DNA of 64,000 nt, taken from Candidatus Leucobacter sulfamidivorax. GTDB lineage: Bacteria; Actinomycetota; Actinomycetes; Actinomycetales; Microbacteriaceae. Location of the stretch: contig QZLF01000003.1 of NCBI GenBank assembly GCA_016771945.1, forward strand, positions 620,001-684,000. The letters are read 5' to 3'. The position numbers and the translations under genes were made by a program. Shown piece after piece: positions 48,931-63,602 of the stretch. Within the stretch, counting starts at the first letter, position 1. Each line of letters starts with the position of its first letter. The notes under the pieces were generated by a model. It worked only from the letters and a program-made list of their open reading frames with translations, did no database searches and was not told the origin of the DNA.

Positions 48931-49588
48931 TATTCGCAGTGACGCCCCCGTGCTCGTGATCGGGCTCGGCCGCTTCGGCGCCGCAACGGCGGGGCAGTTG
49001 GACCGGCAGGATCGCGAGGTGCTGGTCGTCGACACCGACCCCGGGCTCGTGCAGAAATGGGCGGATCGCGTCACCCACGCGGTGCAGGCCGACGCGCGCT
49101 CGATGGAGGCGCTCAGGCAGATCGGCGCCGAGGAGTTCCAGATCGCCGTGCTCGCCACGGGCGCCTCGGTCGAGGCGAGCGTGCTCATCGCCGCGAACCT
49201 CGTCGACCTCGGCATCCCGCAGATCTGGGCGAAGGCGATCTCGCTGTCGCACGGCAAGATCCTCGAGCGCATCGGCGTGAACCACGTCATCTACCCCGAG
49301 CGCGAGGCGGGCGAGCGGATCGCGCACCTCCTGAGCGGCAGCATGCTCGACTTCATCCAGTTCGACGACAACTACGTCATCGCCAAGATGTATCCGCCGC
49401 GGTCGATCCGGGGCGTCTCGCTCGAGGCGAGCGGCGTGCGCACCCGCTACAAGGTGACGGTGGTCGGGGTGAAGACGCCGGGGCAGCCGTTCACGCACGC
49501 GGTGCCCGAGACGGTGGTGTCGCCGCACGACCTGATCATCGTGTCGGGGACGGCCGCCGACGTGGAGCGCTTCGCCGCGATCGGGTAG
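48923..49588 (+). CDS. TrkA/KtrA-type potassium channel regulatory subunit
   Basis: This 221-residue protein has the RCK N-terminal Rossmann motif VLVIGLGRFGAATA and a C-terminal TrkA_C domain (IRGVSLEASGVRTRYKVTVVG). Start TTG 48923 lies within the trkH end, preceded by AAAGG. It binds nucleotides and gates TrkH. The downstream DNA begins the sigma-dependent locus. Confidence 0.92.
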   Translation: MVDIRSDAPVLVIGLGRFGAATAGQLDRQDREVLVVDTDPGLVQKWADRVTHAVQADARSMEALRQIGAEEFQIAVLATGASVEASVLIAANLVDLGIPQIWAKAISLSHGKILERIGVNHVIYPEREAGERIAHLLSGSMLDFIQFDDNYVIAKMYPPRSIRGVSLEASGVRTRYKVTVVGVKTPGQPFTHAVPETVVSPHDLIIVSGTAADVERFAAIG

Positions 49589-49612
49589 CTCGGAAAAAAT
49601 TTTCGGGATCCC

Positions 49613-49644
49613 GGGAACATTCCGGCTCTCTTCCGCATCGGATA
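49613..49644 (+). promoter_or_regulatory. predicted ECF-sigma promoter 1
   Basis: GGGAAC (49613-49618), then 16 bases, then GCATC (49635-49639) followed by GGATA, 43 bases before the ATG at 49687. The same two elements at exactly the same spacing precede the genes at 51944 and 59135. This is typical of an ECF-type -35/-10 pair and was found by comparing the three sites. Confidence 0.7.
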
Positions 49645-49686
49645 GTGCAGGACACCGCTTTCTCCGATCCAGCAGACAGGAGCGCC

Positions 49687-50004
49687 ATGAACGACAACGT
49701 GCTCGGCGAACCGCCCGAACCCCCGGCGGAGGTGTGGGAGCGCGCCCTCGCCCACGCCTTCGATCCTGCGAACTCCTTCGATCCCGGGCTGCTGCCCGAG
49801 CCCGTCGAGGCGGGGTCGGGCGGGGACGAACAGGGCGAGGCCGAGTGGGGCGACGACGCGGAGCCCGCGCAGGATCCCGCCGATGCGCTTCCCGACGACG
49901 CGTTCTGGGACGGGGGCGAGGATCTTCTCGGAGATCACGACGGTCACGACCAGGGCGGCCCGGTCGATCACGACGGCTTCGACGCCCCGGATCTCGCGCC
50001 ATGA
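49687..50004 (+). CDS. acidic Asp/Glu/Gly-rich protein of unknown function
   Basis: This 105-residue protein has no signal peptide or membrane segment. It starts LGEPPEPPAEVWERALAHAF and continues with repeated FDP, EPV and DHDG-type acidic segments. It is the first gene behind promoter 1 and overlaps the GTPase gene by ATGA. The composition suggests a disordered acidic partner of the downstream GTPase, analogous in position to IniB of mycobacteria, but no sequence similarity is claimed. I do not recognise a family. Confidence 0.6.
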   Translation: MNDNVLGEPPEPPAEVWERALAHAFDPANSFDPGLLPEPVEAGSGGDEQGEAEWGDDAEPAQDPADALPDDAFWDGGEDLLGDHDGHDQGGPVDHDGFDAPDLAP

Positions 50005-51803
50005 CGGGCGAGCCGCAGCCTGCGCTCCACCTCGCGCCGACGACGACGCACGCGGCGCGGAAGGCGGCACTCGCACTGCAGGGCACGCGCTGGGAGGACG
50101 AGGCGCGGCGGCTGCAGCTGCGGTTGCAGGGCGGCGGGCCGACCCCGCCGGTGCTCGTGGTCGCGGGAGAGACCGGACGCGGCAAGAGCACCCTCGTGAA
50201 CGCGCTGCTCGGCCGGCCGGAGGCCTCCCCCACCGGCCGCGGCGGCGTCACCGCGCTGCCGATCGTCTTCGCACCGCCCGAGCCCGGGTCGTCGGCCGGA
50301 CCGGGCACGACGCGGCTGATCTTCGACGACGGCGGATCGCGCGAGATCCCCGCCGAGCGGCTCGCGGACTGGGCGTGCAGCGGCGGTGCGGCGCGGCACG
50401 ACGACGCGGCGGATCCGCCCCGATCCGTGCTCCGCGTCATCGACGACACCCCGCTTCCGGGCATCACCGTCATCGACACCCCGGGGGCGGGCGGGCACAA
50501 CCCGGTCTACGCGCGCGCGGCCATAGCGGCTGCGGGCGACGCGGGGGTCCTGCTCGTGGTCACCGACGCCGGCGGGCGCCTCACCGCACCGGCCCTCGGA
50601 TTCGTGAAGGAGTGCGCGCGGGGCGTCGACCACGCGATCGTCGCGATGAACGGCATCGACACGAACCGCTCGTGGCCGGTCATCGCGGAGGAGAACCGCG
50701 AGCTGCTCGCGCAGGCCCTGCCCGGGATCGACGCGGAGGTCGTCGGCGTCTCGGCGCTGCGCGGGACCGCCGCGCTGAGCGAGCCCGACGAAGGCCGCCG
50801 CGGTCGCCTCTGGGACGCCAGCGGCGTGCCGGAGCTGCTCTCACGGATCGCCGACGCCTTCGCACGTGGGCACGCCCGGCGCGCGAAGCGGGCGCTCGGG
50901 GAGTTCGACGTCATGCTCGCCGCCGCCCACCGCGAGGCCCAGGACGAGCTCGAGGCGCTCTCGCCGGAGGAGCCCGCGGGCCCCTCGCCGAAGGAGCGGC
51001 TGAAGCGATTCGGCGAGGCGAAGGCCGAGGCCGAGAAGGGCTTCACCCGGGAGGCCCAGGATCTCTGGGACGAGCTCACCGAGCGACTGCAGCGCGTGCA
51101 GTTCGCGCTCACCAATCAGTGGGTCGACCGACTCGGGCAGGCGCCCCTGCTCGGCCTCAGGGAGGAGGAGCGACTGCAGATGCTCGGCCAGTTCAAGGCC
51201 GAACTCGAGTTCGAGGGCTACGGGATCCTCACCGCAGCCGCGGAGGGCGCCGTCGACATGACGGTCCGGCTCTTCGCCGGGCCGGGCCTCGTGTGCCCGC
51301 CGAGCCTCACCGACACCCTCTCGCAGGTGCCGGCGCTGTTCACCTTCGAGCTGCAGCCGCAGGGCGCGCTCTCGAGCGCGGCCAAGGGCAAGGGCCTGAT
51401 GCGGGGCGGCATGTACGGCATGATGGTCGGCCGCATGCTGGGGCCCTACGGGCTGCTCGCCGGCGGCGTCACCGGATTGCTGGGCGGCGCGACACTGATC
51501 CGGCGATTCGAGACGCCGAAGCTCATGCGCGAGGAGATCACCCGCGCGCTGCAGGAGTGCTTCATGCACCTGCGCCAGCAGCTGAACGCGCTGCTCAAGC
51601 GCCTGCGCTACCAGACGCTCGACGAGTTCCGCGACGGCTGCGACGCCGAGGCGCAGCGCCTTCGCGCCCTCAACGAGCAGGCCAGTCGGGAGGCGGCGGA
51701 GCGCGGTCGTGCGACGGCCGCGGCGAAATCGTCGATGTCGGATCTGCACACCGCCAGGCAGCTGCTGCGCGACGAGGCGCAGCGCCTCGCGCGCGAGGTC
51801 TGA
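50001..51803 (+). CDS. dynamin-family GTPase
   Basis: This 600-residue protein has G1 GETGRGKS (residues 56-63), G3 DTPG (159-162) and an N-x-x-D G4 at NGID (217-220), where Lys is replaced by Gly. A long helical middle (about 290-410, EAKAEAEKGFTREAQDLWDEL) leads to a Gly-rich hydrophobic segment (464-500) like the membrane-inserting paddle of IniA/BDLP, then a second helical tip. The layout is that of bacterial dynamin-like membrane remodelling proteins. It is coupled to the acidic gene before it. Confidence 0.85.
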   Translation: MTGEPQPALHLAPTTTHAARKAALALQGTRWEDEARRLQLRLQGGGPTPPVLVVAGETGRGKSTLVNALLGRPEASPTGRGGVTALPIVFAPPEPGSSAGPGTTRLIFDDGGSREIPAERLADWACSGGAARHDDAADPPRSVLRVIDDTPLPGITVIDTPGAGGHNPVYARAAIAAAGDAGVLLVVTDAGGRLTAPALGFVKECARGVDHAIVAMNGIDTNRSWPVIAEENRELLAQALPGIDAEVVGVSALRGTAALSEPDEGRRGRLWDASGVPELLSRIADAFARGHARRAKRALGEFDVMLAAAHREAQDELEALSPEEPAGPSPKERLKRFGEAKAEAEKGFTREAQDLWDELTERLQRVQFALTNQWVDRLGQAPLLGLREEERLQMLGQFKAELEFEGYGILTAAAEGAVDMTVRLFAGPGLVCPPSLTDTLSQVPALFTFELQPQGALSSAAKGKGLMRGGMYGMMVGRMLGPYGLLAGGVTGLLGGATLIRRFETPKLMREEITRALQECFMHLRQQLNALLKRLRYQTLDEFRDGCDAEAQRLRALNEQASREAAERGRATAAAKSSMSDLHTARQLLRDEAQRLAREV

Positions 51804-51845
51804 GGCGAGGCCGGAGCCGCCGATCCGAGAAAATCTCCGATTCAC

Positions 51846-51872
51846 GGGAACTTTCAGGGCCCTTCGGGCATC
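51846..51872 (+). promoter_or_regulatory. predicted ECF-sigma promoter 2
   Basis: GGGAAC (51846-51851), exactly 16 bases, then GCATC (51868-51872), 71 bases before the ATG at 51944. It matches promoters 1 and 3 in both boxes and in spacing. Confidence 0.7.
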
Positions 51873-51943
51873 TACTCTTCCGAACACACCGAGAGCGGCC
51901 CCCGGGCCGGCGACCGACCACCGCACAGAAACCGGAGCAGATC

Positions 51944-53323
51944 ATGAGCGACTTCCCCGACGTCGATTTCAACACCGACGACTTCAACGCCGACTTCGAA
52001 GACTTCACCGCCGACCCCTCGCAGACCCCCGTCGCCGTGCCGCCGGACTTCGAGTCGGGCAGCGGCACCACCGAGGTGCTCACCTTCAATCTCGGCGGCA
52101 ACCTGATCGAGCTCTCGACCCACGAGTGGGGTCAGCTGAGCGACGGCTCGAGCTACGCGATCGTCGATGTCGACGAGAACGGACGGGCCGACAGCATGGT
52201 GCTCGACACGGACGGCGACGGCATCGTCGACTCGGCGATCGTGCGGCTCGAGGACGGGTCCTTCCTGCTCGGGATCGACGGCGATGGCAACGGCAGCTTC
52301 GAGAGCGAGCTCCCCCTCAGCGAGGCCGAGCTGCAGGCGGCGGCCCCCGACGCCTACGACATCATGGTCGCCCACGATGTCGAGCTCATCCCCGGCGAGG
52401 CGGATCCGGGAGCCGATCCCGGGGTCGACCCCGCCGCGGATCCCGGCGTCGTCTACCCCGAGGTCGACGAGGGGCGGATCATCGGCGATCCCTTCGCCTA
52501 CGGCGACGACTGGTTCTACCAGTCCTTCGACGGCTCATGCCTGCCCGCCGCGCTCGCGCAGATCTACAGCGAGTACATGGGCGTCCAGGTGGGCGACGAG
52601 GCCTTCGTGCAGATCGCGAACGAGCTCGGGGCGTGGATCGTGGACAGCGAGGGCGGGCCCGGGATCGCTCCCGGCAGCGCCGCCGAGATGCTGAACGCGG
52701 CGGGGATCCCGGCCGAGTACTTGACCGACCAGACCATCAACGATCTGGCCGGCTACCTCTCCGCGCCGCCGCACGCGGTCATGGTCGCGGTCGACGCCGA
52801 CGTCTACTGGAGCGGTGAGCCCGCCGACGGCATCAACCACGCCGTGCTGCTCACCGGCATCGACCCCGTGAACGGCGTCGTCTACCTGAGCGACACCGGC
52901 ACCCCCGACGGCAACATGATCGAGGTCGACATCGAGGCCTTCCTCGAGGCCTGGGGCGTCGGCGGCAACCAGCTCGTCGTGACCGAGCTGTCGGTGGCGG
53001 AGTTCCAGGACGCCCAGTTCGCGGACCCCGCGGTCGAGCCGATGCCGGCGGACGCCCTTCCGAGCGACGCGGCACCCGACTTCGAGGCCGCACCGCCCGT
53101 CGATCCGGCTCTCGATCCGGCAGGAGCCATGGCCGGATCGGACACCGCTCCCCTGCGCGGCGAGGGGACGGTCCCGGAGCTGAACCTCGAGGGCGCGACG
53201 CTGACCTCCCAGGGCCCGATCGGCCAGGCCACCGACTGGGTGCGGACCCACCCCTGGGTCCTGGTCCCGGTCGTCATCGGCGCCGGCGCCGTCATCGCCG
53301 GTGCCCTGCAGAAGCGCGGCTGA
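51944..53323 (+). CDS. C39-like cysteine peptidase with calcium-type loops and C-terminal membrane anchor
   Basis: This 459-residue protein starts with an Asp/Phe-rich segment (FNTDDFNADFEDF). Three EF-hand-like Asp loops follow at about residues 75, 88 and 112 (DVDENGRAD, DTDGDGIVD, DGDGNGSFE), then a C39-like papain fold with GSCLPAALAQI (Cys199), GINHAVLLTGID (His299) and LSDTG (Asp317). A C-terminal helix (about 438-455) is followed by QKRG. There is no signal peptide, so it is probably a tail-anchored protein with a cytosolic peptidase. An outer orientation cannot be excluded. Confidence 0.75.
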   Translation: MSDFPDVDFNTDDFNADFEDFTADPSQTPVAVPPDFESGSGTTEVLTFNLGGNLIELSTHEWGQLSDGSSYAIVDVDENGRADSMVLDTDGDGIVDSAIVRLEDGSFLLGIDGDGNGSFESELPLSEAELQAAAPDAYDIMVAHDVELIPGEADPGADPGVDPAADPGVVYPEVDEGRIIGDPFAYGDDWFYQSFDGSCLPAALAQIYSEYMGVQVGDEAFVQIANELGAWIVDSEGGPGIAPGSAAEMLNAAGIPAEYLTDQTINDLAGYLSAPPHAVMVAVDADVYWSGEPADGINHAVLLTGIDPVNGVVYLSDTGTPDGNMIEVDIEAFLEAWGVGGNQLVVTELSVAEFQDAQFADPAVEPMPADALPSDAAPDFEAAPPVDPALDPAGAMAGSDTAPLRGEGTVPELNLEGATLTSQGPIGQATDWVRTHPWVLVPVVIGAGAVIAGALQKRG

Positions 53324-53324
53324 G

Positions 53325-53894
53325 ATGAGCCCCGAGACGGTCCTGCTCATCGCCCTGGCCGGCGTGCTGCTCATCGCAGCCGCCGGCCTCGGCGCGGTCG
53401 CGGCGCGCAGCAGCAGGCGCATCCGGACGCTCGAGGAGCACGTCGCCGAGTGGCGGTCGACCGCGAACCGGTTGAACGCCGAGCTGCAGCGCCTGCGCGA
53501 GCAGGGCGCCGCCGCGGCCCCCGTCCCGGTCCCCGATCCCGCGGCGAGCACCGCGATCCCCGGCGCGGAGAGCGCCGGCACGGCGGCTGCCGGGACTCCC
53601 CGCGCAGTGATCGACGAGCTCGTCCACCTCGCCGACCTCGCCAGCGGGTCGGCGCTCGAGGTGCAGGCCCGGCGCGCACTCGTCGCAGCGGGGCTCGAGG
53701 AGAGCTCGCCGGTACCCGGCGACGCCTTCGACCCCGTGCGGCACACGGCGGCGAATCTGGAGCCCTCGGATCGCTTCGATCCGGGCACGGTGCTCCGCGT
53801 CGAACGCCCGGGCTGGCGCCTCGGCGGTACGCTGATTCGCACCGCGGATGTCACCGTCACCGCCGCGCCGGAGCCCGAGGAGGTGCAGCCATGA
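53325..53894 (+). CDS. membrane-anchored GrpE-like nucleotide exchange factor
   Basis: This 189-residue protein has an N-terminal membrane helix (residues 4-26), then a coiled-coil region (RTLEEHVAEWRSTANRLNAELQRLRE), a Pro/Ala-rich linker and a C-terminal GrpE beta-domain-like end (GTVLRVERPGWRLGG, then RTADVTV). GrpE opens the nucleotide cleft of Hsp70. The next gene encodes a membrane-anchored Hsp70, so this would be its dedicated exchange factor. It overlaps that gene by ATGA. Confidence 0.72.
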   Translation: MSPETVLLIALAGVLLIAAAGLGAVAARSSRRIRTLEEHVAEWRSTANRLNAELQRLREQGAAAAPVPVPDPAASTAIPGAESAGTAAAGTPRAVIDELVHLADLASGSALEVQARRALVAAGLEESSPVPGDAFDPVRHTAANLEPSDRFDPGTVLRVERPGWRLGGTLIRTADVTVTAAPEPEEVQP

Positions 53895-56033
53895 GCTGGG
53901 AGCTCGCCGTCGACTTCGGCACCTCGAACACCACCGCCGCGATCCTGCGCGACGGGCAGGTCTCGGTATTGCGGCTCGAGAGCGGCGGATCGATGCCCTC
54001 GGCGGTCGCGCTCGTCGGCGGAGAGTTCCGCATCGGCACCCACGCGCTCAACGCCCGGCGCGCGGTGCCCGACGCGTTCGAGGGCACCCCGAAGCTGCTC
54101 GTCGGCGGAGGCACGACCGTGCTCGACGGCGACGTGTACCCCGCGCAGCGCATCGTGAGCGCCGTGCTCGCACGGGTGCGGGCCGTGGCGAGCGAGCGAG
54201 CCGGCCATGAGGAGCCCAGCCGCATCGTACTCACCCATCCGATCGCCTGGACTCCGCAGCAGCTCGACGAACTCGCCGCCGCCGCGGTGGAGGCGGGGTT
54301 CTCGCGCGAGCGCATGGTCATGATCCCCGAGCCGATCGCCGCGGCCTACGGCCTCGCCGATTCGGGGCTGCGGCTCGGCGACCGGGTCGCGATCGTCGAC
54401 TGGGGCGGCGGCACCTGCGACGTCGCCGTGCTCGAGCGCTCGCCCGGACAGCCCGACGCTCCCTTCATCGTCACCTGCTGGGCGGGCGACGGCGCCCTCG
54501 GCGGCAACGATCTCGACAATCGGCTGTTCCGGCTCGTGCTCTCCCGCCTCCTCGAGGCCGGCGAGCAGGCCATCGTGGAGCGCCTCGGCACGGCCCAGGG
54601 CCTCGGGGCGCGGCTCACGCTCATGGAGGACGTGCGCCGGGCGAAGGAGGAGCTGTCGTGGCACGAGACCGCGCAGGTGCTCGTCGCGACGGGCGACGAC
54701 GAGGCGACGCTCACCATCACCCGTCAGGACTACGAACAGGTGATCGCCGACGAGATCGCGCGAGTGCTCGGCACGCTCGAAGAGGGTCTCGGCTCCCCGG
54801 GCTCGACGGGCCTCTCGCAGGTGATCCTCACCGGCGGATCATCGCTCACCCCTGCGCTCGCGCGCGCGATCGAGGAGCGGATCGGCGTGCCGCCGGTGCA
54901 CTCGGGCGATCCGAAGCTCATCGTGGCCGAAGGCGCGCTGCGCGTCCCCCGGGAGTTCATCGCCGCCAAGCCGGCCGCCGCAGAGGCCCGGCCGCAGGAT
55001 CCGCCCGCCGAGACGTCCGCACCGGCGCCCGACGCCGCGGAGTCCGCGGTCCCCATCGTGCACCCGAGCCTTCCGCAGCAGCCGCTGCCGCCGGTCCCAT
55101 CCGCGGCGCAGCCGCCGGCACCGCAACCGCCGGCACCGCAACCGCCCGCACCGCAGCCGCCGGAGCCGCGGGCTCCCGAGCCGATGGCCACCGGACCCCA
55201 GCCGCCCGCGCCGCAGCAGCAGTCATTCGTCGCGCCGGCCTGGCAGCCGGCGCAGCCCGTGCCCCAGGCCACCGCACCGGTGCCGCAGTACCTGCCCGTG
55301 GCTCCCCCGATACCCCAGCCCGGCCCGCCCGGCGCGAAGCGAGGCAAGGGCGGCGCCACGGCGCTCATCGTGATCGGCTCGGTCGTCGGCGGTATCCTGG
55401 TCATCGTGCTGCTGGTGGTACTCCTCGGCGTTCTCGGCTCTCTCGGGCAGTCGGGCGGCGGAAGCACGGGAGGCAGCGGGGACACCGACGGCGGCGGCAC
55501 CGGCGGCGGGGACACGACGGAGTCGGTGCTCTGCTGGAACGGCACCTCCGCGAGCCGCGCCTCCGCATGTCCGAGCTTCACCGGACCGTTTAGCGCTGGA
55601 GTGGGCGTTCGAGGACATCCAGGCCGAACCGGTGACCTGCGAGACGAACATGAACGGCGACGCCGAGGAGCGGCTCTGCGGCTTCGACGCCTATCCGGAG
55701 GCCACGATCTTCGTCTTCGACACCTCCACCCCCGAGGGGCGGGACGACCTCGCGCGACTGAGCGGCCTCACCATCGACGGCACGGAGTCCGTCACTCTGG
55801 ACAACGGCGACACGGTCGGCACGGTCACCTATACGAGCACCTCGACCGACGGTGTGCAGCGCGAACTGATCACCGTCTTCGAGTACACCGATCTGCCCAT
55901 CGCCATCTGGATCCAGGTCGCCTCCGACACCGCGCTCACCGCGGATCAGATGGCCGACCAGGTCGCGGCCTGGGAGGCGACGTACCTGCGGTACCAGGAG
56001 GACATCGACCGAGCGGCCCCACTCGTACCATGA
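53891..56033 (+). CDS. transmembrane Hsp70-family ATPase (reading frame shifted near 55589)
   Basis: The gene encodes an Hsp70/actin-fold ATPase domain (VDFGTSNTT, VAIVDWGGGTCDVAVL, VILTGGSSLTPA), no classical substrate domain, a Pro/Gln-rich linker (about 370-480), a membrane helix (about 488-516) and an outside domain. After residue 566 the frame is broken: skipping one T at 55589 restores TGPLALEWAFED and continues to TGA at 56033, overlapping the next ATG. The corrected protein is 713 residues. Without correction the frame runs on into the next gene. Probably a sensor or chaperone spanning the membrane. Confidence 0.75.
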
Positions 56034-58420
56034 CCCATTCGCCCTGGCGCGTCGCCATCGACCTGCGCTCCCCGATCGCCGTCGCGGTCGGGGAGCGCGG
56101 CGGCGCGCGCGTCCCGGGCGAGCGACGTGCGCGCACGGTCCTCCGCGCCGAGCGGGGAGGACCGCAGAACGAGGCCGAACTCGTCCGGCAGCTGGTGCTG
56201 CGGCTCGCGGAGGTCGACGGGATCCGTCCCGCGGGACAGGAGCAGGCGCTGCGGCCCGACGAGCTGCTGCTCGTGCACCCACCGGGAGGCGACGACGCGT
56301 CGATCGCGGAGCTGCTCCGCCTCGCGGAGGGCCTGCACGCGCGGCGCGTGCGCGCGGTGCCCGGTCACATCGCGGTCGCCCACCACTGCGCCCACGCCGA
56401 TCCGCCCCCGATCGGGAACGGCGTCGCAGTCGTCGAGTTCGGCGCCGCGTCCTGCGGCGTGGACGGGCTGCGACGCGAGGCCGACGGCTCCTTCGCCCCG
56501 CTCCCGCACCGCGACATGCCGGGGCTCGGCAGCGACGCCCTCGACCGACTCGTGCTCGATTGGGCCGAGCGGCAGCTGGGCGAGCGCGGCGAGACGGAAC
56601 TGCTCGGCCTGCTCGTCGATCCCACGGCGGAGGCCTTCGCCCAGCGGATCGCGCGACGCGCCGGGGAGGCCAGGGAGGCCCTCGGCGAGATGCCCGTGGC
56701 CACCATCCTGGTGGACTCGGACCGCCGGAGGGTCGCGCTGGAGATCACCCGCTCCGAGTTCGAGGAGCTCGCCGAGGCGGCGCTCGCGCCGGTGGCCGAG
56801 GCGCTCCGGATCGCGGCGGCCGAGACGCCCGGGGGCCTCGCGGCCGTCCACCTGTCGGGTGCCGGCGCCCGGCTGCCCGTGCTGGCGGCGGTGATCCAGC
56901 GCAGCACCGGCCTGCTGCCCGCGGTCGTCGAGCGCCCGGACGCCGCCGCGGCCACCGGGGCGCTGCTCGTCCCCCGCGCCGAGCCGGATGCGGCGGATGA
57001 GCCGCCGCCGGACCTGCCGACCGCCCGCGGGCCCCGGGACGAGACGGCCCGCAGGGTCTCCGAGGAGATCCTGCACCTGACCGCTGCCGTCGAGGCACTG
57101 CTCGGGGACGCGGCGACGCCGCTCGCCTCGGAACTGCGCGAGAGGGCGGAGCGGGTGCCGCGGGTCGCCGTCGTCGGCCGGGTCAAGGCGGGCAAATCGA
57201 CGCTCGTGAACGCCGTCATCGGCCGCCGCGCCGCGCCGACCGACGACCGCGAATGCACCCTCATCGTGACCCGGTACCAGTACGGCGCGCCCGAACGCTG
57301 CGAGGTGCTGCTGCGCACCGGCGAATCGCGCTCGCTGCCTCTCGAGAACGGCGGCCTCCCCGCCGACCTCGGTGCCGAGCCGGGCGAGATCGAGCACGCG
57401 ACCGTCCATCTCAGCTGCGACGCGCTGCGCGATTTCACGCTGATCGACACCCCGGGCCTCGCGTCCACCACCGAGCAGACCCGCGAGACGGCGCGGCGCT
57501 ACCTCTTCGGCGAGCGCCAGGCCGAGAACGCCGACGCCATCGTCTACGTCTTCCGCCACGCCCAGTTCGCCGACGACTCCGCCGCGCTGCGAGCGCTCGC
57601 GATCTCGAACGGCGCCATCGGCGTGCTCTCCTTCGCCGACGTGCACACGAGCCCGTGGGGGGAGGACGATCCGCTCGAGCACGCCGCGGCCGACGCGGCC
57701 GCGATCGCCGCCGCGACCCCCGAGCTCGCGACCGTGATCCCGCTCGCGGGCAGGCTCGCGGAGGCCGCGACCGCCGGCCTGATCCGAGAGTCGGACGCAT
57801 CGGCGCTCGCGTCCTACACCGCGGTCGACACCCTCGACCTCGAACTCGGCGCCGTGGACGACGCCGAAGGGCTCGAGCGCCTGAGCAGCCTGCTCGGCGA
57901 GTACGGGCTGCGCCACGGCAGGGCCGTCGCCGGCGACGGCGCGGCGTCCCTGCGGCAGTGGGCGCGATCCGCCTCGGGCATCGACGACCTCGCACGGGAG
58001 CTCGCGGCGCGCTCGATCGGCCGCTACCACCACCTCATCGCGCACTCGAGCCTGCGCCGCCTCGAGGCGCTCGCCCGAGAGCTCGCCCGCATGGATGCGC
58101 TCGGCGTCGTGCAGCAGGCCCGCCAGCAGCCCCACATGCACGGGGTCGTCGAGCTGGAGGCGATGATCCGCCTCGCCGAGGCCGTTCCCCAGCACCCCCT
58201 GCTCGACGAGCTCGCGCTGCAGCTCGACGCCCGCAACGACGGCGAACGCGTACGCGCACCGGCGGGAAGCGACGCCGCGGAGATCCGCAGTCGCGCCCTC
58301 GCCGCGGCAGGGCGAGCCCGGACCCGCGCCTCCGTCTCGATCGACCCTCGGGAGGAGTTCGCCCTGCGCACCCTCATCCGCTCGTACGCGCTCATCGCCG
58401 ACCGCAGCGCAGCCTCCTGA
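56030..58420 (+). CDS. fusion of degenerate Hsp70-like domain and dynamin-like GTPase
   Basis: This 796-residue protein has an N-terminal actin/Hsp70-like region (about 1-325, RVAIDLRSPIAVAV to VHLSGAGARLPVLAA). In it the phosphate-binding loops are poorly kept, so ATPase activity is doubtful. It continues into a GTPase with P-loop GRVKAGKST (about 379-387), DTPG (about 471) and a helical C-terminal part. ATG 56030 lies in an ATGA overlap with the transmembrane Hsp70 gene. It may couple the Hsp70 partner to membrane-acting GTPases. I know of no close described protein. Confidence 0.75.
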   Translation: MTHSPWRVAIDLRSPIAVAVGERGGARVPGERRARTVLRAERGGPQNEAELVRQLVLRLAEVDGIRPAGQEQALRPDELLLVHPPGGDDASIAELLRLAEGLHARRVRAVPGHIAVAHHCAHADPPPIGNGVAVVEFGAASCGVDGLRREADGSFAPLPHRDMPGLGSDALDRLVLDWAERQLGERGETELLGLLVDPTAEAFAQRIARRAGEAREALGEMPVATILVDSDRRRVALEITRSEFEELAEAALAPVAEALRIAAAETPGGLAAVHLSGAGARLPVLAAVIQRSTGLLPAVVERPDAAAATGALLVPRAEPDAADEPPPDLPTARGPRDETARRVSEEILHLTAAVEALLGDAATPLASELRERAERVPRVAVVGRVKAGKSTLVNAVIGRRAAPTDDRECTLIVTRYQYGAPERCEVLLRTGESRSLPLENGGLPADLGAEPGEIEHATVHLSCDALRDFTLIDTPGLASTTEQTRETARRYLFGERQAENADAIVYVFRHAQFADDSAALRALAISNGAIGVLSFADVHTSPWGEDDPLEHAAADAAAIAAATPELATVIPLAGRLAEAATAGLIRESDASALASYTAVDTLDLELGAVDDAEGLERLSSLLGEYGLRHGRAVAGDGAASLRQWARSASGIDDLARELAARSIGRYHHLIAHSSLRRLEALARELARMDALGVVQQARQQPHMHGVVELEAMIRLAEAVPQHPLLDELALQLDARNDGERVRAPAGSDAAEIRSRALAAAGRARTRASVSIDPREEFALRTLIRSYALIADRSAAS

Positions 58421-58514
58421 CGGCCCGCGGCAGTCTGTCCAATACCTCTCCGACAGGGCTATCATTGGCTGCACCGAACGCGCGCATTGGTGCGCCTCCC
58501 GAGAGGGCGACGAC

Positions 58515-59036
58515 GTGGACACTCCCGCACCCGACCCGGCTCCCGTGAAGGCCCGGCTCGATGACCGTGCGTTCCGCGAGCTCGTCGAGCCGCACCGGGC
58601 CCGGCTCTGGGGCGTCTGCCTGGCGGTCACCGGCAACCCCTCCGACGCCGAGGACGCCCTGCAGGAGTGCCTGATCGCGGCCTGGCGGTCACTCCCCGGC
58701 TTCCGCGGCGACTCGAGCTTCTCGACCTGGATCTACCGCATCGCGGTCAACGCCTCGCGCGCGCTGCTGCGTCGTCGACGAGAGCTCGCGGAGGAGCTCG
58801 GCGAGTACGCCGACCCGCGGCACGGCTTCGACGAGCGGATCGCCGTGCGCGACCGGGTGCAGCGCGCGCTGGCGCAGCTCAGCGAGGATCGCCGGGTCGC
58901 GCTCGTGCTGCGCGAATACGGCGAGCTCAGCTACAACGAGATCGCCGAGCAGCAGGGGATCCCGGTGCAGACCGTGAAGTCGCGCATCAGCCGCGCCCGA
59001 GACGACATGCGCCGCATCCTGAGCGAAGAGATGTAG
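58515..59036 (+). CDS. ECF-family RNA polymerase sigma factor
   Basis: This 173-residue protein has sigma region 2 (DAEDALQECLIAAWRSLPGFRG, then FSTWIYRIAVNASRALLRRRR) and region 4 (LREYGELSYNEIAEQQGIPVQTVKSRISRAR). GTG 58515 follows GAGAGGG at eight bases. No anti-sigma gene is adjacent, which is unusual for this class. Its own upstream lacks the GGGAAC box; TATCAT near 58460 may be a housekeeping -10 element. It is placed between two of its predicted target units, so it likely drives the surrounding genes. Confidence 0.92.
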   Translation: MDTPAPDPAPVKARLDDRAFRELVEPHRARLWGVCLAVTGNPSDAEDALQECLIAAWRSLPGFRGDSSFSTWIYRIAVNASRALLRRRRELAEELGEYADPRHGFDERIAVRDRVQRALAQLSEDRRVALVLREYGELSYNEIAEQQGIPVQTVKSRISRARDDMRRILSEEM

Positions 59037-59051
59037 GACGTCGCCTCCTCG

Positions 59052-59078
59052 GGGAACATTTCGGCGGATCCGCGCATC
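59052..59078 (+). promoter_or_regulatory. predicted ECF-sigma promoter 3
   Basis: GGGAAC (59052-59057), exactly 16 bases, then GCATC (59074-59078) with GAATA next, 56 bases before the ATG at 59135. The match to promoters 1 and 2 in boxes and spacing supports one shared sigma factor. Confidence 0.7.
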
Positions 59079-59134
59079 GAATAGGTATCGAGGTTCGGAC
59101 GGACCGGACCTCCATACCGGAAAGGGTGAGGATC

Positions 59135-59614
59135 ATGATCTCCGAGATCTTCGACAACGACTTCGACGGCTACTTCGAGACCACCGGCTTCGACACCGAC
59201 GGCGACGGCCGCTTCGACGTCATCATGACCGACACGAACCTCGACGGCTACTGGGACACCGCCTGGTGCGACACCGACTTCAACGGCTCCTTCAACACCG
59301 TGGCGGTCGACACCGACGGCGACGGGAGCATGGACTGGATCGCCGCAGACGCAGACGGCGACGGCATCCCGGAGACCCCCGTCGACATCGCCTCCATCTA
59401 CACCCAGAACGCCACGGTGTACCCGAGCACCTCCTACGTCTCCGCGCCCACGGACCCGGATCCGTATTACACCTTCCTGACCTCGCCCGCCGTGGTCAAC
59501 AACACGGATCCCTACATCCAAGGACTGATCAACGACTTCCAGACCAGTCTCGAGATCCAGACCAGCGTCTGGACCCTCCCCGATGGCTGGACCATCGAGC
59601 GCGAGTACCGCTGA
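59135..59614 (+). CDS. secreted-looking or disordered Asp-rich repeat protein with calcium-type loops
   Basis: This 159-residue protein has a first half of repeated DxDxDG-type loops (FDTDGDGRFD, DTNLDGYWD, DTDFNGSFN, DTDGDGSMD, DADGDGIPE). The second half is Tyr/Thr-rich. No signal peptide or membrane segment is seen. The repeats resemble those in the peptidase at 51944-53323, so both may bind calcium. It has its own predicted sigma promoter and ends 12 bases from the convergent proC gene. The function is unknown. Confidence 0.65.
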   Translation: MISEIFDNDFDGYFETTGFDTDGDGRFDVIMTDTNLDGYWDTAWCDTDFNGSFNTVAVDTDGDGSMDWIAADADGDGIPETPVDIASIYTQNATVYPSTSYVSAPTDPDPYYTFLTSPAVVNNTDPYIQGLINDFQTSLEIQTSVWTLPDGWTIEREYR

Positions 59615-59626
59615 TCCTGCGGCGGA

Positions 59627-60505
59627 TCAATCGGCGCTGGAACCGGCGGCGAGCTCCTCCGACCGCGCGATCGCAGCCGCGAGCGCGCGGTCGAATGTCT
59701 CGGCGAAGCCGCCCTCCTGCAGCACCGCGATCGCCCGCTCGGTCGTGCCGTTCGGGCTCGTCACGCGGCGGCGCAGCTCGGCCGGATCCTCGCCGGATCG
59801 CGCCAGCAGCTCCGCGGCGCCCGTGACCGTGCCCTCGGCCATCAGCCTCGCGTCCTCCTCGGAGAAGCCGAGGCGCCCGGCTGCGGCGGTGAGCTGCTCG
59901 ACGAAGAAGAACAGGTAGGCGGGCCCCGATGCGGACACGGCGCCGAGCGCGTCCATGCGATCCTCGTCGATCACGAGCACCCGCCCGACGGTCTCGAACA
60001 CGCGCCGAACGATGCCGACCTGCGCAGAGCCTGCTGATCCGCCCCCGGCGAGCCCGGTCACGCCGCGCCCGACCAGCGAGGGCGTGTTCGGCATCGCACG
60101 CACCACCGCGACGCCGGCCGGCACCAGCGCCTCCATGCTCCGCGTGGTGATGCCGGCCGCCACGCTCACCACGATCGCGTCCGGAGCGAGATCGTCGGCC
60201 ACCTCCTGCAGCAGGTCGTGGATCGCCCAGGGCTTCACCGCGAGGATCACCACGCCCGCGCCGCGCACCGCCCGGCGGTTGGCGTCGGGATCCGCCTCGC
60301 CCGCGAAGGCCACGACGCCGCTCGCCGCCTCGTACTCGGCCGCGCTCGCCGTCGATCTCGTGGTGACCGCGATCGGGCCGTCGATGCGGACGCCGGGGGC
60401 GCGGAGCCCCGCGAGGATCGCGCCGCCCATCGAGCCGACGCCCAGCAGGGCCACGCGGGGCAGGGCCTCCCCCGGATTCGCAATGGATTCGTTCACGTCG
60501 TTCAC
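59627..60505 (-). CDS. proC: pyrroline-5-carboxylate reductase
   Basis: This 292-residue protein has the Rossmann motif LLGVGSMGGAILAGL (near residue 20), VVRAMPNTPSLVGRGVTGL, the signature SASGPAYLFFFVEQL and TSPNGTTERAI. It reduces pyrroline-5-carboxylate to proline with NAD(P)H as the last step of proline synthesis. It is housekeeping, convergent with the sigma locus, which marks the end of that locus. Confidence 0.95.
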   Translation of the reverse strand: MNDVNESIANPGEALPRVALLGVGSMGGAILAGLRAPGVRIDGPIAVTTRSTASAAEYEAASGVVAFAGEADPDANRRAVRGAGVVILAVKPWAIHDLLQEVADDLAPDAIVVSVAAGITTRSMEALVPAGVAVVRAMPNTPSLVGRGVTGLAGGGSAGSAQVGIVRRVFETVGRVLVIDEDRMDALGAVSASGPAYLFFFVEQLTAAAGRLGFSEEDARLMAEGTVTGAAELLARSGEDPAELRRRVTSPNGTTERAIAVLQEGGFAETFDRALAAAIARSEELAAGSSAD

Positions 60506-62162: not shown

Positions 62163-63602
62163 GTGCCTCATGTCAAGTTGATCGCGTAATCGGTGTTGTG
62201 CCTCACATAGATTGATCGCATAACCCATTGCTCAGGCGGTGCGGAGTTTCACCCCACCGGTCTGGCGTTTGCGCCGGTTCTTCTTCGCGTCCTCGACCTC
62301 GGCGGTGAGCACCTCGGTCTTCCACTTCGCCTTGGTGATGAGCATGCCCTGGTACCTCACGATGTCGCGGGTGAGTTCGACCGGGTTGAGTTTCATATAC
62401 TGTGCCCGCAGCGCTCGTTCTTGCACGCGGGAGAGCACCCCTGACTCGAGAACCCGCTGGTACGGGGTCTTCGGCTTGTCATACACGCGCAGTCTCCGCC
62501 CCTGCCCGTCACTTACCCAGCCGATGGGTTTTCTTGTCGGGGTGAAGAAGTTCATCTTCAGCGTCACTACCTGCCAGAGTTTGGCGAGCACCTCTCGCTC
62601 GTCGGTGGTGTCGTATCGGTAGTAGAACCCGTACTTGCGGACGATGTGGTTGTTCTTTGATTCCACGACGGCTTGATCGTTCTTTTTGTACGGGCGCGAG
62701 CGAGTGAAGAAGATCTTCCGCTCACCTGCCCACTCGACGACTTTGTCGTTGATGAACTCGCTCCCGTTATCGCAGTCCAGGCCCGCAATCCCGAACGGCA
62801 ACGCGGCCTCGACCCGATCAAGGGCTGCGAGCATGTGCACTCGGGCGTTGTTGCGCAGCACTTCCAGGTGGGTCCATCCTGTCTCCACACAGGTGGCGGT
62901 GAGGGTTCTCGCGAACTCGCCCTTCAACGTTGGCCCGCAATGCGCGACGGTGTCACACTCCATGAACCCGGGCTCGTGCTCTGCCTCGTCCCCGGCTTTC
63001 CTGATCGTGATCGAGGTGCGCAGCAGCGCACCAGAACGAGTCGCGGAGATCCCTTTCAGCTCGAGTGCGTTCCGGTGTTCGCGGAGGTATCGCTCGATCG
63101 TCGCCGCAGACATCCGGAGCAACTCGTCACGCACCCGAGCCGAGTACTCATGCTCACCCTCGCGCAGCTCGCCATGCGCTTCAAGCCGGCTAATCCATTC
63201 AGGGAGCATCGGTTTCATGTACTTCCCACACGGGTACATCATCACCCGCCACAACCACACCAGCACTCGTTTCGACGCGGCCGAATACTTCGTGGGACGG
63301 TGACGGCGTCGGTCGATCTTTGTGACGTTCTTCACCCCGAGCAACGGGTCAGTGAGATACCGTCTCGCAGTGACCCTGGAGACCCCGGTCGAGCTGCAGA
63401 AATGATCCAGAATCCCAGACTTCTCAGACCGTGTCGCAACTCGATACGCCTGCTTGAGTTGTTTCGTCACCTCGATACGAGTCGCCACCGACACCACACC
63501 CTTGTTCATACCTGCCGAGCGTAGGAAGTACGCGATCAAAGTATGTGAGGCACGACTTGGGCTACGCGATCAATAAACGTAAGGTACGTCGTCGACTTGA
63601 CA
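62163..63602 (-). mobile_element. insertion sequence with symmetrical paired end repeats (ISNCY/IS1202-like), about 1.4 kb
   Basis: The ends carry the same nested pattern. A 12-mer TTGATCGCGTAA-type box occurs at 62178 and 62212 on the left and, inverted, at 63528 and 63562 on the right, 34 bases apart on both sides, with GTGCCTCA (62198 and 63546) between. TGTCAAG is found near both outer ends (62171 and 63602). The precise ends and any target duplication cannot be fixed by eye. Confidence 0.65.
62232..63509 (-). CDS. DDE transposase (rve integrase core)
   Basis: This 425-residue protein has a helix-turn-helix N-terminus (HFCSSTGVSRVTARRYL) and an integrase core with ECDTVAHCG (first Asp), GLDCDNGSEF (second Asp) and QAVVESKNN (Glu), matching the D,D,E order. 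TRSRPYKKNDQAVVE is a family hallmark. ATG 63509 (MNKGVVSVAT) is chosen; a TTG ten codons upstream lies inside the end repeats. The gene is intact. Confidence 0.9.
   Translation of the reverse strand: MNKGVVSVATRIEVTKQLKQAYRVATRSEKSGILDHFCSSTGVSRVTARRYLTDPLLGVKNVTKIDRRRHRPTKYSAASKRVLVWLWRVMMYPCGKYMKPMLPEWISRLEAHGELREGEHEYSARVRDELLRMSAATIERYLREHRNALELKGISATRSGALLRTSITIRKAGDEAEHEPGFMECDTVAHCGPTLKGEFARTLTATCVETGWTHLEVLRNNARVHMLAALDRVEAALPFGIAGLDCDNGSEFINDKVVEWAGERKIFFTRSRPYKKNDQAVVESKNNHIVRKYGFYYRYDTTDEREVLAKLWQVVTLKMNFFTPTRKPIGWVSDGQGRRLRVYDKPKTPYQRVLESGVLSRVQERALRAQYMKLNPVELTRDIVRYQGMLITKAKWKTEVLTAEVEDAKKNRRKRQTGGVKLRTA

What the first reader, a model, noticed from the sequence alone, without database searches (positions are those of the whole stretch)
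49600..59614. ECF-sigma-linked dynamin/Hsp70/GrpE/C39-peptidase locus
Eight genes combine two dynamin-like GTPases, two Hsp70-like ATPases (one membrane-anchored, one fused to a GTPase), a membrane GrpE-like factor, a tail-anchored C39-like cysteine peptidase and two acidic proteins with an ECF sigma factor. Several cistrons overlap by ATGA. The closest known parallel is the mycobacterial iniBAC operon, where dynamin-like IniA/IniC sit with IniB in a cell-envelope stress response. The presence of chaperone and peptidase parts suggests a membrane-remodelling or envelope-damage response machine. No close described system is known to me.
Basis: partly seen in the sequence, partly recalled or inferred. 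Interest (0 to 1): 0.92.

Follow-up and report, generated by a model that had tools for sequence, protein, structure and literature searches.

The report
Dedicated-sigma dynamin, Hsp70 and protease locus
A bacterial chromosome carries a self-contained set of eight genes, apparently switched on by its own sigma factor, that couples two membrane-shaping dynamin GTPases to a membrane-anchored Hsp70-type ATPase, its exchange factor and a C39-type protease with calcium-binding-like repeats; relatives of this set recur in distant bacteria and I found no description of it.

Summary
Eight plus-strand genes (49687-59614) encode acidic protein A, dynamin B, C39-like C, GrpE-like D, Hsp70-like E, an Hsp70-dynamin fusion F, ECF sigma G and acidic repeat protein H. 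E changes reading frame near 55590 in this assembly. Three copies of GGGAAC-N16-GCATC lie before A, C and H (0.05 expected). The same element precedes system genes on Rhodococcus plasmids, so the sigma factor probably has a dedicated regulon. Related sets recur in Rhodococcus, Gordonia, Aeromicrobium, Streptomyces and Dactylosporangium. C39 relatives sit near dynamin genes in 15 of 17 loci titled outside Actinomycetota and on an Anabaena plasmid. It is not iniBAC: the genome has a separate iniBAC-type locus, and B and F fall outside the IniA and IniC clades. IniB (35 loci) and the ECF gene (14 loci) never share a locus among 66. Best reading: an ECF-switched, membrane-bound dynamin/Hsp70 remodelling or repair module. 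C and H carry DxDxDG repeats, which suggests calcium gating (inferred). The locus lies at the trkA-proC junction, a variable site in the genus. Ten searches of the held papers found no description; function is untested.

The parts
49613..49639 (+). ECF-type promoter 1 (GGGAAC-N16-GCATC) before A-B
   Evidence: 3 exact matches in the window against 0.05 expected
49687..50004 (+). A: small acidic protein, 105 aa, N-terminal PP-x2-VW-x2-AL-type motif and acidic tail
   Evidence: relatives in Rhodococcus, Gordonia and G727 (F and B identical to Aeromicrobium L089) loci; net charge about -29; no Pfam or NCBIfam family
50001..51803 (+). B: dynamin-like GTPase, 600 aa
   Evidence: Dynamin_N 4.6e-8; PDB match IniA 6j72 7.2e-11; tree
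51846..51872 (+). ECF-type promoter 2, before C-D-E-F(-G)
51944..53323 (+). C: C39-like cysteine peptidase, 459 aa, with three D-x-D-x-D-G loops (residues 75, 88, 112) and a C-terminal hydrophobic tail
   Evidence: C199/H299/D317 invariant in 31 sequences; model me3de65ba55a1; loops and tail
53325..53894 (+). D: GrpE-like protein with N-terminal membrane segment, 189 aa
   Evidence: GrpE 7.7e-13; hydropathy
53891..55591 (+). E (first part): Hsp70-type nucleotide-binding domain, Pro-rich linker, membrane segment (about residues 487-522)
   Evidence: HSP70 1.6e-29; hydropathy; end approximate because the frame changes near 55590
55590..56033 (+). E (second part): predicted ectodomain, in another frame in this assembly
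   Evidence: GC3 phase; no relative by BLASTP among the loci held
56030..58420 (+). F: degenerate Hsp70 nucleotide-binding domain fused to a dynamin-like GTPase, 796 aa
   Evidence: Dynamin_N 1.8e-12, HSP70 1.4e-5; no other such fusion in the loci scanned; lost ATP motifs
58515..59036 (+). G: ECF sigma factor, 173 aa
   Evidence: Sigma70_r2 and r4_2; 48-54% identical to the ECF proteins of related loci
59052..59078 (+). ECF-type promoter 3, before H
59135..59614 (+). H: acidic protein, 159 aa, six D-x-[DN]-x-[DN]-G loops at exact 13-residue spacing, no hydrophobic stretch
   Evidence: 0 of 2000 shuffles reach six

Best explanation
A dedicated, ECF-sigma-switched membrane remodelling or repair module. 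SHOWN: the gene set, three matching promoter elements before A, C and H, conserved linkage of the parts in distant genomes, an intact C39 Cys-His-Asp set, predicted membrane segments on C, D and E, and D-x-D-x-D-G repeats on C and H. INFERRED: after a membrane or envelope insult G transcribes A-B, C-D-E-F and H. D and E, anchored in the membrane, form a GrpE/Hsp70-type ATP switch with E's ectodomain outside. F, whose dead Hsp70 domain is fused to a dynamin, docks the dynamin pair B/F on that switch, and the pair tethers, fuses or cuts the inner membrane. C is a cytosolic, membrane-tethered protease, and the D-x-D-x-D-G repeats of C and H bind calcium entering through a leak, so protease and module become active only at damage. 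How G is controlled is unknown; no anti-sigma factor was found and A is one candidate.
For: Domain calls. Promoter element: 3 in the window against 0.05 expected; of 7 whole-genome matches the only 3 with the extended form GGGAACnTTY are in this locus. The strict form gives 19 sites in 15 related loci (339 kb; 8 of the 15 loci, some near-copies of each other) and 0 in 35 IniB loci, 20 random regions, 9 Streptomyces loci and 11 other ECF loci; the loose form gives 24, 2, 2, 0 and 0. 18 of the 19 start 76-296 bases before a system-gene match. Linkage: of 66 dynamin-F loci, Hsp70 55, ECF 14, GrpE in 12 of the 14 ECF loci. B and F trees agree on the same C39/ECF grouping. C39 with a dynamin gene within 10 kb in 32 of 42 named loci, 15 of 17 titled outside Actinomycetota. 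In 14 of those 17 the C39 reading frame itself starts with 5 to 66 acidic loops and shows no hydrophobic N-terminus. Membrane segments. F alone fuses both domains among loci scanned.
Against: No expression or phenotype data. The loose promoter form is not enriched genome-wide (7 matches, 6 for the reversed control), and 7 of the 15 related loci lack the strict form. Calcium binding is inferred from the pattern only, and outside Actinomycetota the loops are mostly not at 13-residue spacing. C39 is in only 2 of 14 ECF loci and 3 of 66 loci overall; class-wide, 17 of 394 genomes have the C39 profile, and in 14 of the 17 no C39 place lies within 20 kb of an F-type place. C's tail is not shared by the relatives aligned. 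E is frame-broken in this assembly, so the module may be inactive here.
Confidence: 0.5

Rival explanations
1. Anti-phage or anti-plasmid defence: infection triggers the protease and dynamins to alter the membrane and abort infection.
For: Patchy distribution and carriage on Rhodococcus, Gordonia and Anabaena plasmids; PADLOC matches to LeoA (B 1.4e-8, F 1.6e-10), LeoBC (B 1.7e-7, F 9.4e-8) and mads_8 (B 0.0041); printed GTPase/HSP70/GrpE systems are read as conflict systems (PMC7159879, sections 27 and 29).
Against: PADLOC lists no family for A, C, D, G and H and only a weak PDC-M61B match to E (0.018). Of 10 sampled proteins from other genomes' inserts at the same trkA-proC site, 7 are enzymes or transporters, 2 regulators and 1 unassigned, with no PADLOC match but one short match in a LuxR-type HTH. 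Switching by a dedicated ECF sigma factor is unusual for defence (recall).
Confidence: 0.2
2. Assembly or export of the acidic repeat proteins: H, A and C are cargo, moved to or across the membrane by the dynamin/Hsp70 machine, with C39 as maturation protease.
For: H and A are small, very acidic and without hydrophobic stretch and have ECF-type promoters; in 10 of 17 loci titled outside Actinomycetota the H-type profile and C39 lie in one reading frame; IniB plays a comparable part beside IniA/IniC (inference).
Against: No leader or GG-type cleavage site was sought; I know of no export route for such proteins (recall).
Confidence: 0.2
3. Only an iniBAC paralogue with extra genes.
For: B's best PDB match is IniA and the F-family profile matches IniA best; an Hsp70-type gene lies in the 20-kb stretch of 35 of 35 IniB loci.
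Against: No IniB in the locus; B and F outside the IniA and IniC clades; a separate locus whose IniB N-terminal domain passes the NCBIfam cut-off in the same genome (L013); no shared promoter element.
Confidence: 0.07
4. Chance neighbours without a common function.
For: The set is rare in the genus.
Against: Same gene families together, in shuffled order, on Rhodococcus plasmids and in Aeromicrobium and Streptomyces; shared promoter element.
Confidence: 0.03

Closest known systems
iniBAC operon (IniB, IniA, IniC) of mycobacteria
   Same: Two dynamin-like GTPases, B and F related to IniA and IniC; an Hsp70-type gene in the 20-kb stretch of 35 of 35 IniB loci (some may be the housekeeping dnaK); envelope-stress role known for iniBAC (passages of PMC5760070 and PMC6715688).
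   Different: No IniB; own ECF sigma factor and promoter element; GrpE, C39 peptidase, acidic repeat proteins and Hsp70-dynamin fusion; B and F in other clades. IniR, an ATPase regulator, controls iniBAC (PMC5760070, passages).
GAP1-N2 double-GTPase (DO-GTPase) systems with HSP70 and GrpE (Kaur et al. 2020, PMC7159879)
   Same: GTPase(s) with HSP70, GrpE and sometimes a second HSP70 lacking the peptide-binding domain, near the membrane (section 29).
   Different: No GAP1 or FNIII component found and DO-GTPase2 far below cut-off in F (13.9 bits against 27); the word dynamin does not occur in the held main text.
Paired bacterial dynamins: Campylobacter DLP1/2, E. coli LeoABC
   Same: Heterotypic dynamin pair encoded side by side.
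   Different: The passages read name an HcpA-like beta-lactamase, not Hsp70, GrpE, C39 or ECF, as operon partner (PMC6104087); the LeoABC paper (PMC4159319) was seen only in a search listing.
Peptidase C39-like proteins (PDB 3erv)
   Same: Sequence-level family match (E 2e-4) and conserved Cys-His-Asp.
   Different: Fused or linked to acidic D-x-D-x-D-G repeats and to dynamin genes.

Membership tests
iniBAC | IniB gene in the locus | tested here: not met
   IniB profile has no hit in the window; NCBIfam lists no IniB model for the nine protein pieces
iniBAC | dynamins orthologous to IniA and IniC | tested here: not met
   F outside the 48-row IniC clade (100*); B outside the 48-row IniA clade (100*); quick trees, and the window rows have long branches flagged by the program
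iniBAC | two dynamin-like GTPases in one locus | tested here: met
   (in the window B and F are separated by C, D and E)
iniBAC | induction by cell-wall inhibitors | not testable with these tools
   needs expression data
GAP1-N2 DO-GTPase system | DO-GTPase | tested here: not met
   DO-GTPase2 13.9 bits against cut-off 27 in F; Dynamin_N 48 bits
GAP1-N2 DO-GTPase system | GAP1 and FNIII proteins | tested here: not met
   no such Pfam family at E 1 in the nine protein pieces scanned
GAP1-N2 DO-GTPase system | HSP70 plus GrpE | tested here: met
ECF sigma factor | regions 2 and 4 in a short protein | tested here: met
ECF sigma factor | cognate promoter element at its targets | tested here: inconclusive
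   a shared element is present, but that G binds it was not tested
ECF sigma factor | linked anti-sigma factor | tested here: inconclusive
   none recognised by Pfam in the locus; A or E could serve
C39-like peptidase | catalytic Cys, His, Asp | tested here: met
   C199, H299, D317 invariant in 31 sequences; activity not tested
Hsp70 chaperone | nucleotide-binding domain | tested here: met
   E 1.6e-29; in F the phosphate motifs are lost
Hsp70 chaperone | peptide-binding domain | tested here: not met
   E's best Pfam stretch stops at profile position 368 of 599; a Pro-rich linker and membrane segment follow
Eleos/LeoABC defence | LeoA and LeoBC | tested here: inconclusive
   LeoA: B 1.4e-8, F 1.6e-10; LeoBC: B 1.7e-7, F 9.4e-8; best LeoA stretches short

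The most novel reading that the evidence does not exclude
The window holds one branch of an undescribed, cross-phylum bacterial membrane-damage system: a cytosolic, calcium-gated C39 protease (a functional analogue of calpain-triggered membrane repair) working with two or three dynamins, tuned in many lineages by an NBD-only Hsp70/GrpE switch and here placed under a dedicated ECF sigma factor.
Probability: 0.25. Interest if true: 0.93.

Novelty: new variant of a known kind. Interest (0 to 1): 0.8.

Why it matters
Bacterial dynamins are widespread but mostly without a known trigger, partner or switch (recall). This locus names candidates for each: a sigma factor with a readable promoter element (trigger), an Hsp70/GrpE pair of which the Hsp70 type is also physically fused to a dynamin (switch), and a C39 protease with calcium-binding-like repeats (sensor or effector). 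The recurrence of C39-dynamin linkage in several phyla, with a roughly 180-residue family that gave no Pfam match in the three members scanned, gives a concrete way into what bacterial dynamins do. It also splits the iniBAC-type loci of Actinomycetes into IniB-bearing and ECF-bearing kinds.

Tried and rejected
Single-protein search for B relatives in genome contigs: 66 pattern matches, none confirmed. H alone by tblastn in plasmids: no match, although BLASTP without the low-complexity filter finds H-like genes on these plasmids. Megablast of 47-62 kb against plasmids: none. Rfam and tRNA scans of the window: nothing. Defence-island idea: 10 sampled proteins from other genomes' inserts at the trkA-proC site are mostly enzymes, transporters and regulators; the inserts were not scanned in full. 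Relatives of E's ectodomain: none by BLASTP in the loci held. X_180, a family of about 180 residues found in 26 of 42 named C39 loci, was not found in the window. Fold comparison of the C model could not be run: the machine was busy or the library absent. A second model, of H, could not be started.

The ECF classification paper (doi 10.1093/nar/gkaa1229) is not held. The literature was searched only in the held open-access library, so 'not described' means not found there.
Full report
OBSERVATION. Open reading frames and GC3 phase give eight plus-strand genes between 49687 and 59614. Pfam confirms dynamin (B, F), GrpE (D), HSP70 (E, and weakly F) and ECF sigma (G); C39 in C is below the Pfam cut-off but is supported by its family: Cys199, His299 and Asp317 are invariant in 31 of 31 aligned sequences, the family profile matches PDB 3erv (E 2e-4), and the AlphaFold2 model has 10-residue block means of 79-97 over residues 181-360 (overall mean 69.2; residues 1-45 and 375-459 below 50, so the hydrophobic tail is not modelled with confidence). 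ATGA overlaps exist at A/B, D/E and E/F. In E the GC3 phase jumps by one base near 55590, so the predicted ectodomain is out of frame here.

SURROUNDINGS. trkH and trkA lie upstream and a proC-type gene downstream. Of 38 genomes searched (the window's own and 37 of the same genus), 37 have a trkH hit and 35 of these have it on the same contig as the proC-type gene. In 21 the trkH-proC gap is 663-916 bases, room for trkA only; in 12 it is 2.2-34 kb, in one 677 kb, and in the window 10.7 kb. The locus is therefore an accessory insert at a variable site. I took the 12 inserts. Of 10 proteins sampled from them, 7 are enzymes or transporters, 2 regulators and 1 unassigned, with no PADLOC match but one short one in a LuxR-type HTH; the rest was judged by eye only.

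REGULATION. GGGAAC-N16-GCATC occurs three times in the window, ending 47, 71 and 56 bases before the start codons of A, C and H, against 0.05 expected and no shuffle of 100 with three. The whole genome has 7 matches, against 6 for the reversed control, so the loose form is not enriched; of the 7 only the 3 here carry the extended form GGGAACnTTY. The strict form appears 19 times in 15 C39/ECF-type loci, in 8 of them (window 3, L021 1, L052 3, L053 2, L054 3, L078 1, L096 3, L097 3; L021/L053 and L052/L054/L097 are close relatives, so the sites are not all independent), and 0 times in 35 IniB loci, 20 random regions, 9 Streptomyces C39 loci and 11 other ECF loci. 18 of the 19 begin 76-296 bases before a system-gene match. 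G has no such site directly before it in the window; it starts 95 bases after F and could be read through from the promoter before C (inference).

DISTRIBUTION. An IniC-like profile (A1) matched 65 of 394 class genomes. I examined 66 loci from it: 60 fetched already held; fragments with E worse than 1e-60 and the second-dynamin hits were dropped before the count. Of 66: B-type dynamin 66, Hsp70 55, IniB 35, GrpE 19, ECF (E up to 1e-30) 14, acidic H 9, C39 3, A 2, X_180 1. IniB and ECF never coincide (0 of 66; Fisher p 3.4e-6, which ignores relatedness); GrpE is in 12 of 14 ECF loci and 2 of 35 IniB loci. The profiles were trained on 6 to 12 sequences each, from loci that include seven of these 66 (window, L013, L076, L077, L082, L084, and L128 which is the same place as L014), so those seven are not independent. 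Some mycobacterial-type Hsp70 hits may be the housekeeping dnaK (recall), so 55 is an upper bound. My IniB profile was made by eye; NCBIfam confirms the IniB N-terminal domain above cut-off in 5 of 5 training proteins scanned (of 6). None of the profiles hits 20 random 20-kb regions at the same thresholds.

Rhodococcus plasmid L053 has all eight families, L052 and L054 all but GrpE; L021, L055 (Gordonia) and L020 are partial in the stretches fetched. Aeromicrobium (L088, L089) and Streptomyces (L107, L109-L115, L126) carry related sets. A scan of named genomes with the C39 profile gave 42 loci; 32 have a dynamin gene within 10 kb. The ten without are seven Williamsia, one Kitasatospora record, L103 (contig ends) and L105. 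Of 17 loci titled outside Actinomycetota (Bacillota, Bacteroidota, Verrucomicrobiota and Kiritimatiellota, one only 'bacterium'; most are metagenome-assembled) 15 have a dynamin gene. A family of about 180 residues (X_180) lies after C39 in 26 of 42; three members scanned gave no Pfam match at E 0.5, and the gene in the same position on the Anabaena plasmid only one below cut-off. That plasmid has Hsp70, four unknown genes, C39, the unknown gene and two dynamins. Against a tight link: class-wide, the 31-row C39 profile hits 17 of 394 genomes; 3 (G000, G727, G753) are in dynamin loci and in the other 14, mostly one genus, often with several copies, no C39 place lies within 20 kb of an F-type place. 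Of six order-search loci examined, three carry IniB (L014, L079, L082), one is ECF-type (L078) and two have neither (L015, L081).

PHYLOGENY. F of the window lies with C39/ECF rows (14 rows, 99*), outside the IniC clade (48 rows, 100*), while the second locus of the same genome (L013) lies inside it. B gives the same picture (15 rows, 98*; IniA clade 48 rows, 100*). Both are quick trees, and the program flags the window rows as long branches whose place is unsure.

ANATOMY. H has six D-x-[DN]-x-[DN]-G loops at exactly 13-residue spacing and C has three, at spacings 13 and 24 (0 of 2000 shuffles reach these numbers). In 14 of 17 C39 frames titled outside Actinomycetota a similar loop (relaxed pattern) is repeated 5 to 66 times upstream of C39 in the same frame, mostly not at 13-residue spacing, and no strongly hydrophobic N-terminus is seen (starts taken as the first Met), which points to a cytosolic protein. 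E and 6 of 9 related Hsp70 proteins (Rhodococcus, Gordonia, G727) have a nucleotide-binding domain, linker, membrane segment and tail; L020, L077 and L078 show no membrane segment. F's Hsp70 part lacks both phosphate motifs, and the fusion is unique to the window among loci scanned.

MECHANISM. My reading is an ECF-switched membrane remodelling or repair module, with the dynamin pair as engine, Hsp70/GrpE as nucleotide switch docked through F, and C39 plus acidic repeats as a possibly calcium-gated protease. Steps from the promoter element onward to function are inferred. Defence, export of acidic proteins and an iniBAC paralogue are the rivals.

KNOWN SYSTEMS. iniBAC (passages of PMC6715688 and PMC5760070) and the GAP1-N2 GTPase systems with HSP70/GrpE (PMC7159879, passages and sections 27 and 29) are the nearest; defining features of both were tested and not met. 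Searches combining dynamin with Hsp70, C39, GrpE, ECF-related or ini terms in the held library found no description of this set (listings only, apart from the papers named here).

Noticed in passing
L013 (same genome, contig 2, about 591-597 kb): A second, iniBAC-type locus (IniB, two dynamins, divergent Hsp70) in the same genome; NCBIfam confirms the IniB N-terminal domain.
   Followed up: yes
window 49588-59627: The trkA-proC junction is a variable insertion site in the genus; 12 other genomes carry inserts of 2 to 34 kb there, with enzymes, transporters and regulators among the proteins sampled.
   Followed up: partly
L098-L106, L108, L116, L118, L122-L124 and others: X_180, a conserved family of about 180 residues after C39 and before dynamins in several phyla, with no Pfam match in the three members scanned.
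   Followed up: partly
window 53891-56033: Frame change in the Hsp70 gene near 55590; sequencing error or real change not resolved.
   Followed up: partly
L054 13286-14554, L055 6119-7426: DUF7373 proteins with lipoprotein-like starts lie near the dynamin gene, on the opposite strand, on Rhodococcus and Gordonia plasmids.
   Followed up: no
L077 8699-9880: A protein-kinase-like gene (29.4 bits, Pfam cut-off 31.7) precedes the Streptomyces-type version, where no ECF gene was found.
   Followed up: no
L085-L087, L091, L093-L095 (Williamsia); L090 (labelled Kitasatospora, very similar ends): C39 relatives without nearby dynamin; L090 may be a mislabelled or contaminated record (judged by eye).
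   Followed up: no
window 62232-63539: Integrase-core (rve) gene on the minus strand in a lower-GC stretch (0.61).
   Followed up: no
search rows: Prescottella equi plasmids also show dynamin, C39 and Hsp70 matches; listings only, not fetched.
   Followed up: no
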